Shown piece after piece: positions 37,884 through 45,050 of a DNA stretch of 48,863 bases (position 1 is its first letter; the number at the start of each line of letters is the position of its first letter). The notes beneath the pieces were generated by a model. The model did not search any database. It saw only the letters and a list, made by a program, of their open reading frames with translations, and was not told where the DNA came from. The position numbers were made by a program, and so were the translations under genes. The DNA is from Candidatus Nanoarchaeia archaeon. GTDB lineage: Archaea > Nanobdellota > Nanobdellia > JAQUSD01. The DNA is taken from contig JAQUSD010000004.1 in the NCBI GenBank assembly GCA_028715295.1, positions 1-48,863 of the forward strand, read 5' to 3'.

Positions 37884-38513
37884 TTATTTACGTTGGTAAG
37901 TAGCAACCACTTCATGGTTTCTTATTTTTTCAATTTTGGAAGCATATTCTTCTTTCTTCCATCCTCTTTTTTTATAATAAGTAGTTTTACTTACACGATC
38001 TAACAAACCTTTGTGGTATTCTTCACATTTAGCTATATGCACTTTTATTTTATCGCCTTTTTCAACAGGAACAACCCCCCCAAATATAATCTTTTCAACA
38101 GGAATTTCTTTATCTTCTGGCTCAATTAATATTTCAAGCACTGATGATGTTCCTGAAAAATTATGAGATATTGAACTGCCAAAAGGAACCATATACATTG
38201 GAACAGCAGGTGTATAAACGTCTTTAATAAAACCATTAACTAATACTACATCAGCTTTAATAGTATCTAAATAATCTTCTGGTTTTTTTGAAGGGATATA
38301 TCCTAACTCTCCATAAGCTTCGATAATGCCCAAAGTAATATCTTCCTCTGTTAAATTAGGATGTTTTTCAAGAATTTCCTTTTTTAGAGTTTTTTGTCTT
38401 TCCACTCTTTTGTTTAATCTCTCCTTAAATTCTTCATCAGACACAATGTTTTTTTTAAGTTCATTTAGCTCCTCAGTTATATTTTTTTTGATACTTTTTT
38501 CCATTTTGCTCAC
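37884..38513 (-). CDS. hypothetical protein, paralogous core with 38510..38959
   Basis: VLEILIEPEDKEIPVEKIIFGGVVPVEKGDKIKVHIAKCEEY shared beta-rich core. Confidence 0.65.
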   Translation of the reverse strand: MSKMEKSIKKNITEELNELKKNIVSDEEFKERLNKRVERQKTLKKEILEKHPNLTEEDITLGIIEAYGELGYIPSKKPEDYLDTIKADVVLVNGFIKDVYTPAVPMYMVPFGSSISHNFSGTSSVLEILIEPEDKEIPVEKIIFGGVVPVEKGDKIKVHIAKCEEYHKGLLDRVSKTTYYKKRGWKKEEYASKIEKIRNHEVVATYQRK

Positions 38514-38959
38514 CAGTGAATATATTCTACTGCAATATCAAGGCTTTTTAATTCCTGTTTTATCTTTTGTATTTTGAAAGCTGTTTCTGTTTCTTTAAGC
38601 TCTTTTCTTGTTATATATTTGGCCTCTACATGTTGGCTTAAAGGATAACATCTATGGAAGCTTAAGGCTTCTTCGTTTACTATGATTCCTGTAAATATAT
38701 ACACCCTTATCAAGTCGTGTTTTTCAATAGGTATTACGGCGGGGTAAATGACTCTTCTTACAGGACACTCTTCATCCTCAACAGGATTTACAAGCAATTC
38801 TAATCTGGAAAATTTTGTGTTGGCTGTTGCTTTTTCAACAATAACATTAAAACTCACAACATAATTATCGCGGTTTGTTGTTGGAATTTCTCTACCCTCG
38901 CATATCCTTTTTATCAATGCATTAACAGTTTCGTTTAGCCCTGTGTCATGGGTGTTCAT
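38510..38959 (-). CDS. hypothetical protein, paralogous core with 37884..38513
   Basis: RLELLVNPVEDEECPVRRVIYPAVIPIEKHDLIRVYIFTGI; overlaps next gene by 4 nt. Confidence 0.65.
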   Translation of the reverse strand: MNTHDTGLNETVNALIKRICEGREIPTTNRDNYVVSFNVIVEKATANTKFSRLELLVNPVEDEECPVRRVIYPAVIPIEKHDLIRVYIFTGIIVNEEALSFHRCYPLSQHVEAKYITRKELKETETAFKIQKIKQELKSLDIAVEYIHW

Positions 38960-40024: not shown

Positions 40025-40098
40025 TGGCCCCACAGGGATTTGAACCCTGGTCTCAACCTCCGCAAGGTCGTATTCTATCCAAGCTGAACTATGGGGCC
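40025..40098 (-). tRNA. tRNA-Arg(GCG)
   Basis: Reverse complement GGCCCCA...CGACC TTGCGGA GGTTG...GGTTCAAATCC...TGGGGCC A. Confidence 0.93.
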
Positions 40099-40138
40099 TT
40101 ACAGAAGTTTAATATTTGTTCACTTATTTAAATACGTT

Positions 40139-40510
40139 ATGCTTAGGTTTTTTCCAGCTCCTGAAATAAAAGTACAAATGAAAAACATAATAGATAAATT
40201 AGGCATGGGGTATATAAAACCTGATAATGTTGTTGTTTTCAAGAGCGAAGGAAGCACTTCAAATGCAATTGCAAGATGCTGGGAACTTCCAAGAATATGG
40301 CAGGAAGCACTTACAATAGAACCTCATTATGTGATTGAATTTTGCTCTGAAAGGTATAATAATCTTTCTGAAGAAGAAAAAGAAAAAGTGATAATCCATG
40401 AACTACTTCACATACCAAAGACATTTTCAGGAGCGTTAAGACCTCACAAAGGGTATGTGAACGAAAGAATAGTAAGCAAACTTCATAAGGCGTTCAAGGA
40501 CTCAGTCTAG
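40139..40510 (+). CDS. COG4900/phage-type putative metallopeptidase
   Basis: KEKVIIHELLHIPKTFSGALRPHKGYVNERIVSKLHKAF; ATG at 40139 clears the tRNA (track start overlaps it). Confidence 0.82.
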   Translation: MLRFFPAPEIKVQMKNIIDKLGMGYIKPDNVVVFKSEGSTSNAIARCWELPRIWQEALTIEPHYVIEFCSERYNNLSEEEKEKVIIHELLHIPKTFSGALRPHKGYVNERIVSKLHKAFKDSV

Positions 40511-40913
40511 ATTTTGTGATAAATTCTTCTATTGTTTTAAACTTGAAAGGACATATTTTATGTTGCCTTAAAATAGCTGATATTAGTTCTTCAAAAGCAA
40601 GTTTTTTTTCCAATGAGTAATTATGGTATGCCCTCTGTTTTTTTGCTGTGTCAGGATTGTTGAGTATATCTACTACTCTGTAAGAAGGCAGATTTTCCTC
40701 AAATTTTATATCTGACAAGAGGTTAGTAAATAAAGAACGTATTGTTAATTTAAGTTTGTCAAGTTCTTCATAGCTTAGATTTATTGGAAGGAATCTCTCT
40801 ATCCTTTCGTAAGCATCATTCAATGAGTACAATCCTCTTTCTGGACGCAGAGCTATGTTCAAAAGAGTGTATACTTCAGGATACTTTTCTTTTAGTGGTT
40901 TTAGCAAATCCAT
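40494..40913 (-). CDS. hypothetical protein
   Basis: 139 aa ORF, ATG start, tightly upstream of next gene's stop. Confidence 0.55.
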   Translation of the reverse strand: MDLLKPLKEKYPEVYTLLNIALRPERGLYSLNDAYERIERFLPINLSYEELDKLKLTIRSLFTNLLSDIKFEENLPSYRVVDILNNPDTAKKQRAYHNYSLEKKLAFEELISAILRQHKICPFKFKTIEEFITKSRLSP

Positions 40914-40920
40914 ATTATTA

Positions 40921-41580
40921 TCACCTCAACATTATTGTTTTTTTATTAGGTATATCATAAATTTCAGTTATGCTTTTGTTAGGTATAATTCCTAAATAAG
41001 TCCACTCAAGCTCATTATCAAAAACACCAATTAATTCCCCTTCACCGTCAATATTTCCTGTTCTAAACACCTTATTTTTGTCAAGATTAACAGTAATCTG
41101 GTATTGTCTTGCTTTAAAAAATGACCACCCTAATTTACCGTTTCTAATGTTAAAAGTGGTTAAATATTGTGCTAAATCGTATTCATTGCCTCCCCCGCTA
41201 AATTCAGCATGTCTGCAGATAAATTCAGAAATGTTTTCCCCTTTTTCACACTTTCTGAAAGCTTTGAGGACATCATCCATACGTTCTGCTTTCCATGTTG
41301 CTTTTGATTCTATTTTTTTTATAACTCCTTCTAAACTACCCTGCACAATCGCGCCATGAGGAAGCAAATCTTTTCCATTTATTATCTCTTTTATCTGTCT
41401 TTCATCCAGAGTCATATACCTGAAAAGAACAACTTCGCCTGTATTTTGATTGTGGCTTGCAGTCCACCATCTGTTAAATCCCTCCTTAAATAACTCTTTT
41501 GAGGTTTCATTAGACAATTTTCTTCCAAATATTTCTCTTGCTTTTTCAAGTAGACTTATATTATTATAGTCTTTTTCCAT
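40921..41580 (-). CDS. hypothetical protein, possible ADP-ribosyltransferase-like fold
   Basis: MEKDYNNISLLEK start; LFRYMTLDERQIKEIINGKDLLP, AEFSGGGNEYDLAQYL, FDNELEWTYLGIIPNKSITEI fit an R-S-ExE-like ordering. Upstream extension in track runs through tRNA genes. Confidence 0.6.
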   Translation of the reverse strand: MEKDYNNISLLEKAREIFGRKLSNETSKELFKEGFNRWWTASHNQNTGEVVLFRYMTLDERQIKEIINGKDLLPHGAIVQGSLEGVIKKIESKATWKAERMDDVLKAFRKCEKGENISEFICRHAEFSGGGNEYDLAQYLTTFNIRNGKLGWSFFKARQYQITVNLDKNKVFRTGNIDGEGELIGVFDNELEWTYLGIIPNKSITEIYDIPNKKTIMLR

Positions 41581-41621
41581 TTCAATTTCAACTTTTAGGC
41601 GCTTTATAAGTGTTGTGGTAA

Positions 41622-41693
41622 TGGACTGGCCGGGAGTTGAACCCGGACTCTCCCGCATGCGAAGCGGATGTGTTGCCATTACACTACCAGCCC
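41622..41693 (-). tRNA. tRNA-Ala(CGC)
   Basis: Reverse complement GGGCTGG...CCGC TTCGCAT GCGG...GGTTCAACTCC...CCAGTCC A; G3:U70 present. Confidence 0.94.
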
Positions 41694-41709
41694 ATTGGTG
41701 TCTAAAAAA

Positions 41710-41783
41710 AGGACCTGCAGGGATTTGAACCCCGATTAGATGGTCCGAAGCCACCTGTTCTATCCAGATTAAACTACAGGTCC
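41710..41783 (-). tRNA. tRNA-Arg(TCG)
   Basis: Reverse complement GGACCTG...GGTGG CTTCGGA CCATC...GGTTCAAATCC...CAGGTCC. Confidence 0.92.
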
Positions 41784-41877
41784 ATTTTAGAAGGATTTAT
41801 TGCGCTTTTTAAAGTTTTTTGTTTTTTAGTTTAATGAACATAGATTTATAACTAAAAAATGATTTTAGTTTACTACA

Positions 41878-41988
41878 ATGTCATGCGGATGTTGCGGAAT
41901 TGAAAAAACAGCTAAAAAAAAGCCAGCTGTTAAAAAGAAAACAGCCAAAAAAACCAAAGCAAAGAAAAAAACAACAAAAAAGAAATGA
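41878..41988 (+). CDS. 36-aa Cys-cluster/poly-Lys small protein, not in ORF track
   Basis: Manual translation MSCGCCGIEKTAKKKPAVKKKTAKKTKAKKKTTKKK*. Confidence 0.5.
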   Translation: MSCGCCGIEKTAKKKPAVKKKTAKKTKAKKKTTKKK

Positions 41989-42075
41989 TTTTGGCTTTCT
42001 TCTAAATCCTTGTTTTTTATTTTTAATTTAAAAAAAGAAAAAAACAGGGCCGGAGGCAGAATGAGAGAAAGAGCC

Positions 42076-42210
42076 TTAAGTTATGATCACCCACTGTGAA
42101 CCGCAGAACGATTCCATGTGCGGATTAAATCCTGCACCTCTTAGTTTTTTAAACATAGTATAGATTTGGTAAACAGACTCCCCCTCAATTTTGATTTTTT
42201 TCTTCAACAT
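42076..42210 (-). CDS. 44-aa small protein, not in ORF track
   Basis: Manual translation MLKKKIKIEGESVYQIYTMFKKLRGAGFNPHMESFCGSQWVIIT*. Confidence 0.45.
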   Translation of the reverse strand: MLKKKIKIEGESVYQIYTMFKKLRGAGFNPHMESFCGSQWVIIT

Positions 42211-42339
42211 TTTTATCACCCAATACTATACATTACAAGTGCTGTAAAAAGCATTCCATGTGTTTGTCATGCCTGTCCGTAAATCATCAGCCAACCCCAT
42301 GTCCTAAAATTAATAAATGTGAACCTGCTCACTTATAAT

Positions 42340-43389
42340 ATGGGTATATTTGACCAGATAGTTTGGGAAAAAAGTGTTTTTAGGAATGAAGGCGTTCTTG
42401 ATTATACATATATGCCTAGCCAGGTTCTTTTTAGGGAAAATGAACAAAAAGAAATAGTAGGTTCACTAAAACCCCTTATTTTTGACAGACTTCCAAGAAA
42501 CATGTATATTTATGGACAGCCTGGTGTTGGAAAAACAGTTTGTGTTAAAAAAGTTCTTGAGGATTTAGGTGAATTTACATCAGACATATATTCTACATAT
42601 GTTGATTTATGGAGCTATAGGACAACAAATGCAATCTACACTGAAATTGCGAGGCAGATGAAAATGCCTTTTGTTTCAGGAAGAAGTTCTGAATTTATAG
42701 CTGAAAGAATAAAAGAAAGAATAACTGCAAAAAAAGGAGCTGTTTTTGTTTTTGATGAGGTTGATAAGGCAAAAGACCAGATGTTTTTGTATAATGTCCT
42801 TACTAATTTTGATAAAGTCTGTACAATAATAATAACAAATGACCAAACATATATGCAGGCTGTTGATGCAAGAATATCATCTAGATTAACGCCTTATTAT
42901 ATGGAATTTAAACCTTACACTATTGAGCAGATTAATGAGATACTTGCTGAAAGAAAAAGAGCAGCTTTTATGTCAGGAGTTATGCCTGAAGAAGCATTTG
43001 ACTTGATTGTTGAGGAAACTTTTAAGTATAACGACATTAGACTGGGGCTTTTCCTTCTTTCTGAATCTGGTAAAATAGCTGATTATAATAACAGTGATAA
43101 AATAAGTGCTGATTATGTAAGCGAAGCAGTTAAGAGAATTGGAACTTTCAAAAACAAGACTTCTTCTGTTGGTTTGAACAAGGAGGAAAAAACAATTTTA
43201 AATATTGTTGGTGAAAATCAGGGACTTACAACAAGCGAACTTTACGGACTTTATGTTGAGCGAGGGGGTAGTCTTTCAGAAAGAAGTTTAAGGAGATATC
43301 TTGAAAAACTGTCTTCTATCAATATGGTTAATGTTAATGAAATCCGTGGCGGGATAAGGGGCAGAAGCTTTCAGGTTTTTATTAAATAA
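42340..43389 (+). CDS. cdc6: Orc1/Cdc6 replication initiator family AAA+ protein
   Basis: NMYIYGQPGVGKTVCVKKVLEDLG; YVDLWSYRTTNAIYTEIARQM; AVFVFDEVDKAK; RISSRLTPYYMEFKPYTIEQINEILAERK; C-terminal wHTH. ATG 42340 preferred. Confidence 0.92.
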   Translation: MGIFDQIVWEKSVFRNEGVLDYTYMPSQVLFRENEQKEIVGSLKPLIFDRLPRNMYIYGQPGVGKTVCVKKVLEDLGEFTSDIYSTYVDLWSYRTTNAIYTEIARQMKMPFVSGRSSEFIAERIKERITAKKGAVFVFDEVDKAKDQMFLYNVLTNFDKVCTIIITNDQTYMQAVDARISSRLTPYYMEFKPYTIEQINEILAERKRAAFMSGVMPEEAFDLIVEETFKYNDIRLGLFLLSESGKIADYNNSDKISADYVSEAVKRIGTFKNKTSSVGLNKEEKTILNIVGENQGLTTSELYGLYVERGGSLSERSLRRYLEKLSSINMVNVNEIRGGIRGRSFQVFIK

Positions 43390-43464
43390 TGGACCCGCGG
43401 GGATTTGAACCCCGATGAGCAGCTTAGGGGGCTGCTGTCCTAATCCAGGTTAGACTACGAGTCC
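43390..43464 (-). tRNA. tRNA-Arg(CCT), non-canonical C33
   Basis: Reverse complement GGACTCG...GCAGC CCCCTAA GCTGC...GGTTCAAATCC...CGGGTCC A. Confidence 0.85.
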
Positions 43465-43499
43465 AATAAAAGTAATTTTTGAATGGTTTAAATATGTTT

Positions 43500-44282
43500 T
43501 TATTCCAGAATTTTCTCAAGAAAGTCTTTTCTGTAGAAAGGCACATCAATGTACAAAGTTAATATTTCTGAATTTTCCATAATCCCCTTAACAAGTGATT
43601 TCAATACATTAAACTCAATACCCCACTTTTTCATATATCTCCTGTCTAAGTTGTTTGAATGGATGTCATATGGGCATAATATGTCGTGGTCAATGCATAA
43701 AACTCCGGATTTTTTATTGCCTTCTTTGTCCTTCAATATTTTTTTTATGTTGTCAAAAGCAAGTTTATTATCCTCCCACTTTTCCTTAAAAACAACATAA
43801 TCAAAATAAATCATGTCTTCTTTTTTATGTGGCTTGAACTGCTCAAAGCAGAACTCTTTGTTGTTATGGCAGTGTTCAGTGTCTAACATAAAAAAAAGCT
43901 TTTTTTTATCTCCGGCAAATTCTTCCATTATGAATTCCCTGTAGTCCCCGCAGTAATATTCAGGTTTTCTAGTCCATATGAAATCTTCTGCAAAATCAAG
44001 ATGTCCGTCAATCCCAAAATAAAAATCCCCTTCAAGAAACAATGCACTTCCATGACACTGCTCATTCCAGTCTTTTGCAAAAACTATTTTTTTATCTCCA
44101 TTTTCAAGAATAACCTTCTCCTCAATAACTCCATTTAGTGTTTTATTTTGTTTTTTTAAAACATTTTTGATGTCTTTTTTTGATATTATTGTTGGACATC
44201 CTATTATCTTATGGTCCTTTCTTTTCAAGTCTATTTCAGAAATCCCATATCCCTTCTCCATACAGTACTCTTCAAGCCTCAT
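43500..44282 (-). CDS. arginase-fold/UPF0489-like protein, tandem paralog A
   Basis: WNEQCHGSALFLEGDFYFGIDGHLDF; GVLCIDHDILCPYDIHSNNLD. Confidence 0.6.
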   Translation of the reverse strand: MRLEEYCMEKGYGISEIDLKRKDHKIIGCPTIISKKDIKNVLKKQNKTLNGVIEEKVILENGDKKIVFAKDWNEQCHGSALFLEGDFYFGIDGHLDFAEDFIWTRKPEYYCGDYREFIMEEFAGDKKKLFFMLDTEHCHNNKEFCFEQFKPHKKEDMIYFDYVVFKEKWEDNKLAFDNIKKILKDKEGNKKSGVLCIDHDILCPYDIHSNNLDRRYMKKWGIEFNVLKSLVKGIMENSEILTLYIDVPFYRKDFLEKILE

Positions 44283-45013
44283 AGCAATTCCTCCAGAAAA
44301 TTTCTTGAAATATAAGGGATTGTCACAAATAAGGTCAGAACATCCGCTTTTTCAAGAATGTCTTTCATTATTCTGCTTAAATCATTAAATCCAATGCCCC
44401 CCAACTTATTGAATGTTGTATCGAGCCTGAATCTTTTAACGTCTTCAGGACACATAATGTCATAGTCCAGACATACAACGCCTTTTTTGCCTTTTATAAG
44501 TTCATCAAGGTTTGGAGTTGAAGAACGGAAAATCCGAATGTAAGCTATGCCTTCAGTAAGACATTTAAGTTCTTTAGTATGGTTTTCAAATTCAGATTCT
44601 GTTGCTGTTGTAAGTAAAATCAGTTTTTTATTGTTTTTTAGCCATTTTTCAGCAATGAATCTTCTGTAATTTGCACAATCATAAATCCCAAACATACCCC
44701 TTCCGTTGCATCCGCTTAAAAAATCAGTATGTCCATCAAGAGCAAGATAAAAATCCCCATCTAAAAAAAGAGAACTTAAGTGGCATTGTTTGTTCCATTC
44801 TGAAGCAAAAACTATTCTTTTTCCATTTTGAGAAGGAACAATAATCCTTTCAACCTCTAATTTTTTCCTTATCTCTGTTTCAGGGTATACTTTGTGGAAC
44901 CTTTTAACAAGTCCTTCTATAAACTCTTCAGTGACATTCATTAAAATGTCCCCCTTATGTCCGTGGACTTCTGAAATCCCATAACCTTTTTCAGTGAATT
45001 CTTCTAAATCCAT
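44279..45013 (-). CDS. arginase-fold/UPF0489-like protein, tandem paralog B
   Basis: WNKQCHLSSLFLDGDFYLALDGHTDF; GVVCLDYDIMCPEDVKRFRLD; overlaps paralog A by 4 nt. Confidence 0.6.
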   Translation of the reverse strand: MDLEEFTEKGYGISEVHGHKGDILMNVTEEFIEGLVKRFHKVYPETEIRKKLEVERIIVPSQNGKRIVFASEWNKQCHLSSLFLDGDFYLALDGHTDFLSGCNGRGMFGIYDCANYRRFIAEKWLKNNKKLILLTTATESEFENHTKELKCLTEGIAYIRIFRSSTPNLDELIKGKKGVVCLDYDIMCPEDVKRFRLDTTFNKLGGIGFNDLSRIMKDILEKADVLTLFVTIPYISRNFLEELL

Positions 45014-45050
45014 AGCTGTTTGATGAGAAGTGCTTTATTTATAAATGTTG

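What the first reader, a model, noticed from the sequence alone, without database searches (positions are those of the whole stretch)
43500..45013. Tandem pair of arginase-fold/UPF0489-like enzymes
Two adjacent, translationally coupled paralogs (260 and 244 aa) share WN(E/K)QCH(G/L)S, (F/A)(G/L)(I/A)DGH(L/T)DF and C(I/L)D(H/Y)DI(M/L)CP. The DGHxD plus DxDxxxP spacing resembles metal ligands of the ureohydrolase/UPF0489 fold. The UPF0489 family includes peptide arginases that modify RiPP arginines. Both copies keep the motifs, so both may be active. The substrate is unknown, and the assignment is by motif only.
Basis: partly seen in the sequence, partly recalled or inferred. Interest (0 to 1): 0.6.

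Follow-up and report, generated by a model that had tools for sequence, protein, structure and literature searches.

The report
Divergent arginase-like gene pair in archaeon
Two overlapping sister genes in a tiny archaeal genome encode a family that no collection searched here contains elsewhere; [quoted passage not shown]

Summary
P0002 (244 aa) and P0001 (260 aa) are an overlapping (ATGA), same-strand pair of real paralogs (32% identity, E 8e-43), both keeping WNxQCH, DGHxDF and DxDIxCP. Profile comparison places the pair in the arginase/ureohydrolase superfamily: hhalign against 36 ureohydrolases plus 4 divergent relatives gives probability 92% and P 6e-7, falling to 77% and 2e-5 after removing two proteins that could bias the set. 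Column shuffles never came near. UPF0489 (PF12640) is not supported: no Pfam hit, no profile match at equal depth, and two of its three motifs absent. Structure prediction was inconclusive (pLDDT 43 and 40; arginases top the Foldseek list for one paralog, not the other). No relative was found in 371 genomes of the phylum, GTDB contigs, viral contigs, phages or plasmids. The pair looks like a two-gene operon (leaderless TATA promoter, internal Shine-Dalgarno), has no Arg-rich precursor or RiPP genes close by, and the genome has a separate conventional arginase-family gene. Most likely: a divergent binuclear-metal hydrolase pair, perhaps a heteromer like MetCaCb; substrate unknown.

The parts
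44279..45013 (-). P0002, first gene of the pair, 244 aa
   Evidence: ORF; paralog of P0001; alone scores prob 79% (68.7% on the bias-free set) against the ureohydrolase profile
43500..44282 (-). P0001, second gene of the pair, 260 aa
   Evidence: ORF; paralog of P0002; alone only a weak match to ureohydrolases
44279..44282 (-). ATGA overlap of stop and start codons
   Evidence: sequence
44290..44294 (-). GGAGG Shine-Dalgarno for P0001, inside the P0002 reading frame, 7 nt from ATG
   Evidence: sequence
45038..45045 (-). TTTATAAA, archaeal TATA-like box for a leaderless P0002 transcript, in the 37-nt gap after the M42 peptidase gene
   Evidence: same spacing as many other genes of the window
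44780..44797 (-). P0002 WNKQCH (res. 73-78), candidate first metal-ligand site
   Evidence: conserved in both paralogs; hhalign puts H77 of P0001 on His of GGDHS
44720..44737 (-). P0002 DGHTDF (res. 93-98), aligned with DAHxD
44675..44677 (-). P0002 Cys113, at the position of the arginase proton-shuttle His
   Evidence: alignment
44447..44467 (-). P0002 DYDIMCP (res. 183-189), aligned with DxDxxDP
44052..44069 (-). P0001 WNEQCH (res. 72-77)
43992..44009 (-). P0001 DGHLDF (res. 92-97), aligned with DAHxD
43950..43952 (-). P0001 Cys111, at the position of the arginase proton-shuttle His
   Evidence: alignment
43671..43691 (-). P0001 DHDILCP (res. 198-204), aligned with DxDxxDP

Best explanation
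The pair is a two-gene operon encoding two diverged copies of a remote member of the ureohydrolase (arginase/agmatinase/formiminoglutamase) superfamily. Each chain probably folds as an alpha-beta-alpha sandwich and binds a two-metal (Mn-type) centre through D92, H94, D96, D198, D200 and probably H77 (P0001 numbering; all shared by P0002). A metal-bound hydroxide then hydrolyses a C-N bond. A Cys at the place of the arginase proton-shuttle His, and no conserved Glu where arginases hold the guanidinium group, argue for a changed substrate. Coupled translation suggests that the two chains are made together and may form a hetero-oligomer. Shown: gene structure, paralogy, shared motifs, statistically supported profile homology. 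Inferred: fold, metal binding, catalysis, oligomerisation. Unknown: substrate.
For: hhalign of the two-sequence alignment against 36 phylum ureohydrolases: prob 75.6%, P 2.4e-5; with four divergent PF00491 proteins added: 92.1%, P 6.2e-7, score 51.0, against a maximum of 22.5 in 150 column shuffles and 21.8 reversed. After removing L010 and its look-alike L050 (L010 had been drawn in by a weak hit to the query): 77.2%, P 2e-5, score 41.8, maximum of 100 shuffles 21.0. Of 43 window genes tested singly against the same profile, these two rank first and second, although the second only just exceeds the third (26.2 against 25.7). The alignment is collinear and sets DGHxD on DAHxD, DxDxxCP on DxDxxDP and GI-FN on GGL. 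In the first AlphaFold model's PDB search nearly all of the top 50 are arginases, agmatinases or formiminoglutamases, best 1cev E 0.088. As a yardstick, OspR, a crystallographically proven arginase fold (PMC10028609), taken alone scores only 3% against the same profile.
Against: No single-sequence database hit of note. P0001 alone is barely detectable (prob 0.8-8.6%), so the signal rests on P0002 and the pair. The structure models are poor (pLDDT 42.6 and 40.1), and the P0002 model matches mostly phosphoribosyltransferases, not arginases. The first metal ligand is not settled: H77 lies 15 residues before D92, against about 21-26 in the related proteins, and ungapped alignments put W72/N73 there. 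No conserved Glu is seen at the guanidinium-binding place.
Confidence: 0.7

Rival explanations
1. UPF0489/peptide arginase: the pair converts peptidyl-Arg to Orn in a RiPP precursor.
For: DxHxD and DxD motifs in the same order; small size (244-260 aa); UPF0489 proteins do occur in the same phylum (7 of 279 genomes over the cut-off).
Against: No PF12640 match; profile prob 0.6% against eight UPF0489 proteins including OspR, below every equal-size ureohydrolase set; [quoted passage not shown] no Arg-rich short ORF or maturase near.
Confidence: 0.05
2. An obligate heteromeric ureohydrolase of the MetCaCb type, in which the two paralogs form one enzyme (a refinement of the best explanation, not exclusive of it).
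For: Adjacent coupled arginase-like pair at 32% identity; MetCa/MetCb are an adjacent pair at 34% identity, inactive apart and active together (PMC11271267).
Against: Both chains here keep the aligned metal-ligand motifs, whereas MetCb has no metal centre; no direct evidence of interaction; the MetCaCb-like pairs in that paper are bacterial.
Confidence: 0.3
3. A different alpha/beta or other metal-binding family that carries DGHxD and DxD by convergence.
For: No curated family hit; poor models; the P0002 model resembles phosphoribosyltransferases.
Against: Significant collinear profile match over about 130 columns with shuffle, reversal and other-gene controls.
Confidence: 0.2
4. Spurious or decaying ORFs.
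For: No homologs found outside this genome.
Against: Two paralogs held open over 244-260 codons with protein-level conservation, promoter and ribosome-binding site.
Confidence: 0.02

Closest known systems
Conventional ureohydrolases (arginase, agmatinase, formiminoglutamase; Pfam PF00491)
   Same: Collinear profile match; DGHxD for DAHxD, DxDxxCP for DxDxxDP, GI-FN for GGL; five of six metal ligands aligned.
   Different: No PF00491 hit; GGDHS replaced by (D/E)WN(E/K)QCH(G/L)S with about eight residues fewer before DGH; Cys for the shuttle His; Cys for Asp in DP; no conserved Glu at the guanidinium site; own N-terminus LEE(Y/F)..EKGYGISE.
Divergent PF00491 proteins of the same phylum (L068 tandem pair, L069, L072)
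   Same: Similar length, weak arginase hits, tandem arrangement in L068, CG at the shuttle-His position in the L068 proteins.
   Different: Those scanned pass the PF00491 cut-off, and they are not recognisably closer to this pair than conventional members are (prob 43% for those four).
MetCaCb metformin hydrolase
   Same: Adjacent pair of arginase-family paralogs at about one third identity.
   Different: Subunits of 357 and 348 aa, Ni-dependent, one subunit metal-free (PMC11271267).
UPF0489 peptide arginases (PF12640, OspR)
   Same: DxHxD then DxD; OspR also lacks the shuttle His and Glu277 (PMC10028609).
   Different: First and third motifs, profile, and genomic context all differ.

Membership tests
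Ureohydrolase superfamily (arginase-like fold) | Profile-level homology to members | tested here: met
   Prob 77-92%, P 2e-5 to 6e-7, shuffles never close
Ureohydrolase superfamily (arginase-like fold) | DAHxD-type motif | tested here: met
   DGHLD/DGHTD aligned on it
Ureohydrolase superfamily (arginase-like fold) | SxDxDxxDP-type motif | tested here: inconclusive
   Both Asp ligands and Pro kept at the right spacing, but Cys replaces the third Asp and the Ser is absent
Ureohydrolase superfamily (arginase-like fold) | GGDHS-type motif with the first His ligand | tested here: inconclusive
   No GGDHS; hhalign puts H77 there with gaps, an ungapped path puts W72 there
Ureohydrolase superfamily (arginase-like fold) | Alpha-beta-alpha sandwich fold | tested here: inconclusive
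   Models of pLDDT 43 and 40; one matches arginases (not significantly), the other does not
Pfam PF00491 Arginase | Match over the curated cut-off | tested here: not met
   No hit up to E 10; own-genome search finds only another gene
UPF0489 / peptide arginase (PF12640) | Match over the curated cut-off | tested here: not met
   the model does find UPF0489 genes elsewhere in the phylum
[quoted passage not shown]
   Sequences of P0001/P0002 read against the motifs of PMC10028609
UPF0489 / peptide arginase (PF12640) | Arg-containing RiPP precursor and maturases nearby (usual in characterised bacterial members, not strictly defining) | tested here: not met
   No Arg-rich short ORF within 40.0-46.3 kb; neighbours scanned are metabolic, AAA, HTH or unknown genes
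UPF0489 / peptide arginase (PF12640) | Urea release from peptidyl-Arg | not testable with these tools
   needs an enzyme assay
MetCaCb-type heteromeric ureohydrolase | Adjacent paralogous pair | tested here: met
MetCaCb-type heteromeric ureohydrolase | One subunit without metal ligands | tested here: not met
   Both keep DGHxD and DxD
MetCaCb-type heteromeric ureohydrolase | Physical heteromer | not testable with these tools
   needs co-purification

The most novel reading that the evidence does not exclude
A previously undescribed family of the arginase superfamily, confined to an isolated lineage of small archaea, in which two paralogs with complete metal sites form one heteromeric enzyme that uses a Cys in place of the shuttle His and acts on a substrate other than a simple guanidine.
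Probability: 0.2. Interest if true: 0.5.

Novelty: new variant of a known kind. Interest (0 to 1): 0.33.

Why it matters
It appears to be an unannotated branch of a well-studied enzyme superfamily, invisible to Pfam and NCBIfam, in a reduced archaeal genome where two related genes are kept next to each other. If the fold is right, it adds to the few known paired arginase-like enzymes and gives a concrete, cheap test of what a Cys-for-His active site can hydrolyse. Without a substrate or relatives it remains a modest finding.

Tried and rejected
Pfam and NCBIfam and phmmer against PDB: nothing of note. Relatives: 93 class genomes with P0002; 371 phylum genomes with the two-row profile (other than the pair itself only sub-threshold hits, E 0.019 or worse, and the one examined closely, L010, matched out of register); GTDB and viral contigs by peptide patterns and by a spaced WN...H...DGHxDF pattern (read, all chance); phages and plasmids. 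A D-x-D-I-x-C-P codon pattern hit 62 of 371 genomes; of the 30 loci fetched, only the window's own two matches lie in an ORF with D.H.D upstream, the rest lie in short or unrelated frames, probably in many cases antisense to some conserved gene. UPF0489 profile with and without OspR: no match. More UPF0489 proteins from plasmids and viral contigs: none. AlphaFold with P0002 first: low confidence, phosphoribosyltransferase-like hits. Circularity check: L010 had been drawn in by a weak match to the query, so it and L050 were removed; the result weakened but held. Rfam near the pair: only tRNAs.

Full report
Observation. The window belongs to a 777-kb, 42-contig genome with archaeal features in the window (TFIIB-like and Cdc6-like genes). 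In the relatives search all neighbours were only of the same class, so it appears to stand alone in its order in the set held. On the minus strand, 45013-44279 (P0002, 244 aa) and 44282-43500 (P0001, 260 aa) overlap by ATGA. They are paralogs: 32% identity, E 8e-43. Shared blocks are LEE(F/Y)..EKGYGISE, IVFA..WNxQCHxSxLFLxGDFYxxxDGHxDF, YxC..YRxFI, GVxCxDxDIxCPxD and GIxFNxL.

Gene structure. P0002 has TTTATAAA starting 32 nt before its ATG and no Shine-Dalgarno, as do many genes in the window; P0001 has GGAGG 7 nt before its ATG. The pair follows an M42 aminopeptidase gene (37-nt gap) and pyruvate:ferredoxin oxidoreductase-type genes on the same strand and ends before a tRNA-Arg. This fits a two-gene transcription unit with coupled translation, which is inference from sequence.

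Distribution. No relative was found outside this genome: 93 class genomes, 371 phylum genomes with the pair profile, GTDB and viral contigs, phages and plasmids. Peptide-pattern scans miss distant relatives, so absence is not proven.

What it is related to. With only two sequences, I built profiles of conventional ureohydrolases from the same phylum (PF00491 occurs in 61 of 90 genomes) and of UPF0489 proteins (7 of 279 genomes over the cut-off). hhalign of the pair: ureohydrolases prob 75.6%, P 2.4e-5; with four divergent PF00491 proteins 92.1%, P 6.2e-7; UPF0489 0.7%. In 150 column shuffles the best score was 22.5 against 51.0, and the reversed alignment scored 21.8. Removing L010 and L050, which could carry selection bias, gave 77.2%, P 2e-5, score 41.8, shuffle maximum 21.0. 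Testing 43 window genes singly, P0002 scored 40.9 and P0001 26.2, first and second, but the third, a TFIIB-like protein, scored 25.7, so P0001 alone is no evidence. Twenty-five random sets of eight ureohydrolases scored 18.6-45.5, all above UPF0489 plus OspR at 18.0. OspR itself, with a solved arginase fold, scores only 3% alone against the same profile, so the method is conservative.

Active site. The alignments place D92, H94, D96 on DAHxD, and D198, D200 with the following Pro on DxDxxDP, in both paralogs; the Cys before that Pro replaces Asp. For the first ligand, the gapped hhalign path puts H77 on the His of GGDHS, whereas an ungapped path puts W72 there with N73 next to it. Foldseek's list includes a T. 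cruzi formiminoglutamase N114H variant (4myn), a lead, not a test, that Asn may occur at such a position. The arginase shuttle His aligns with C111/C113. OspR also lacks this His (Ile73) and Glu277 (Ser264) and is still active (PMC10028609), so these losses do not show that the window proteins are inactive.

Structure. AlphaFold had only two sequences. The P0001-first model (pLDDT 42.6) retrieves mostly arginases, agmatinases and formiminoglutamases from the PDB, best E 0.088; the P0002-first model (40.1) retrieves mostly phosphoribosyltransferases. Neither result is significant. I count this as weak support at most.

Function. Adjacent arginase-family paralogs have a precedent: MetCa and MetCb, 34% identical, are inactive apart and form a heterohexamer in which only MetCa binds metal (PMC11271267). 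Here both chains keep the aligned ligands. The genome also has a separate PF00491 gene on another contig with DAHSD, SIDIDILDP and a VEV segment (L067), so the pair is not needed to explain ordinary ureohydrolase activity. No Arg-rich short ORF or RiPP maturase was seen nearby, so peptide-arginase activity has no contextual support.

Verdict. A real, coupled pair of orphan paralogs, most likely a new divergent branch of the ureohydrolase superfamily; the UPF0489 assignment fails the tests available; substrate unknown.

Noticed in passing
window 41878-41988 (+): A 36-aa ORF, MSCGCCGIEKTAKKKPAVKKKTAKKTKAKKKTTKKK: a CGCC head followed by a Lys-rich tail with no Arg. Possibly a small basic metal- or nucleic-acid-binding protein.
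   Followed up: no
window 40025-43465: Four tRNA genes in 3.4 kb, three of them tRNA-Arg (GCG, TCG, CCT) and one tRNA-Ala.
   Followed up: no
window 40091-40510 (+): Protein matching Pfam PhageMetallopep (PF18894, E 4.6e-23), whose ORF start as listed overlaps the end of a tRNA-Arg on the other strand.
   Followed up: partly
L068 (G087:C72:13000-20000), ORFs from 2014 and 4210: A second tandem pair of divergent arginase-family proteins (254 and 271 aa from the chosen Met) in another genome of the phylum, with CG at the shuttle-His position.
   Followed up: partly
window 37884-38959 (-): Two overlapping genes (149 and 209 aa) that share a PAVIPIEK/GGVVPVEK-type segment and have no Pfam hit; possibly another diverged paralog pair.
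   Followed up: no
phylum genomes: The D(F/L)DIFCP codon pattern recurs in many genomes in short, often interrupted frames, probably antisense to a conserved gene; a trap for motif scans.
   Followed up: partly
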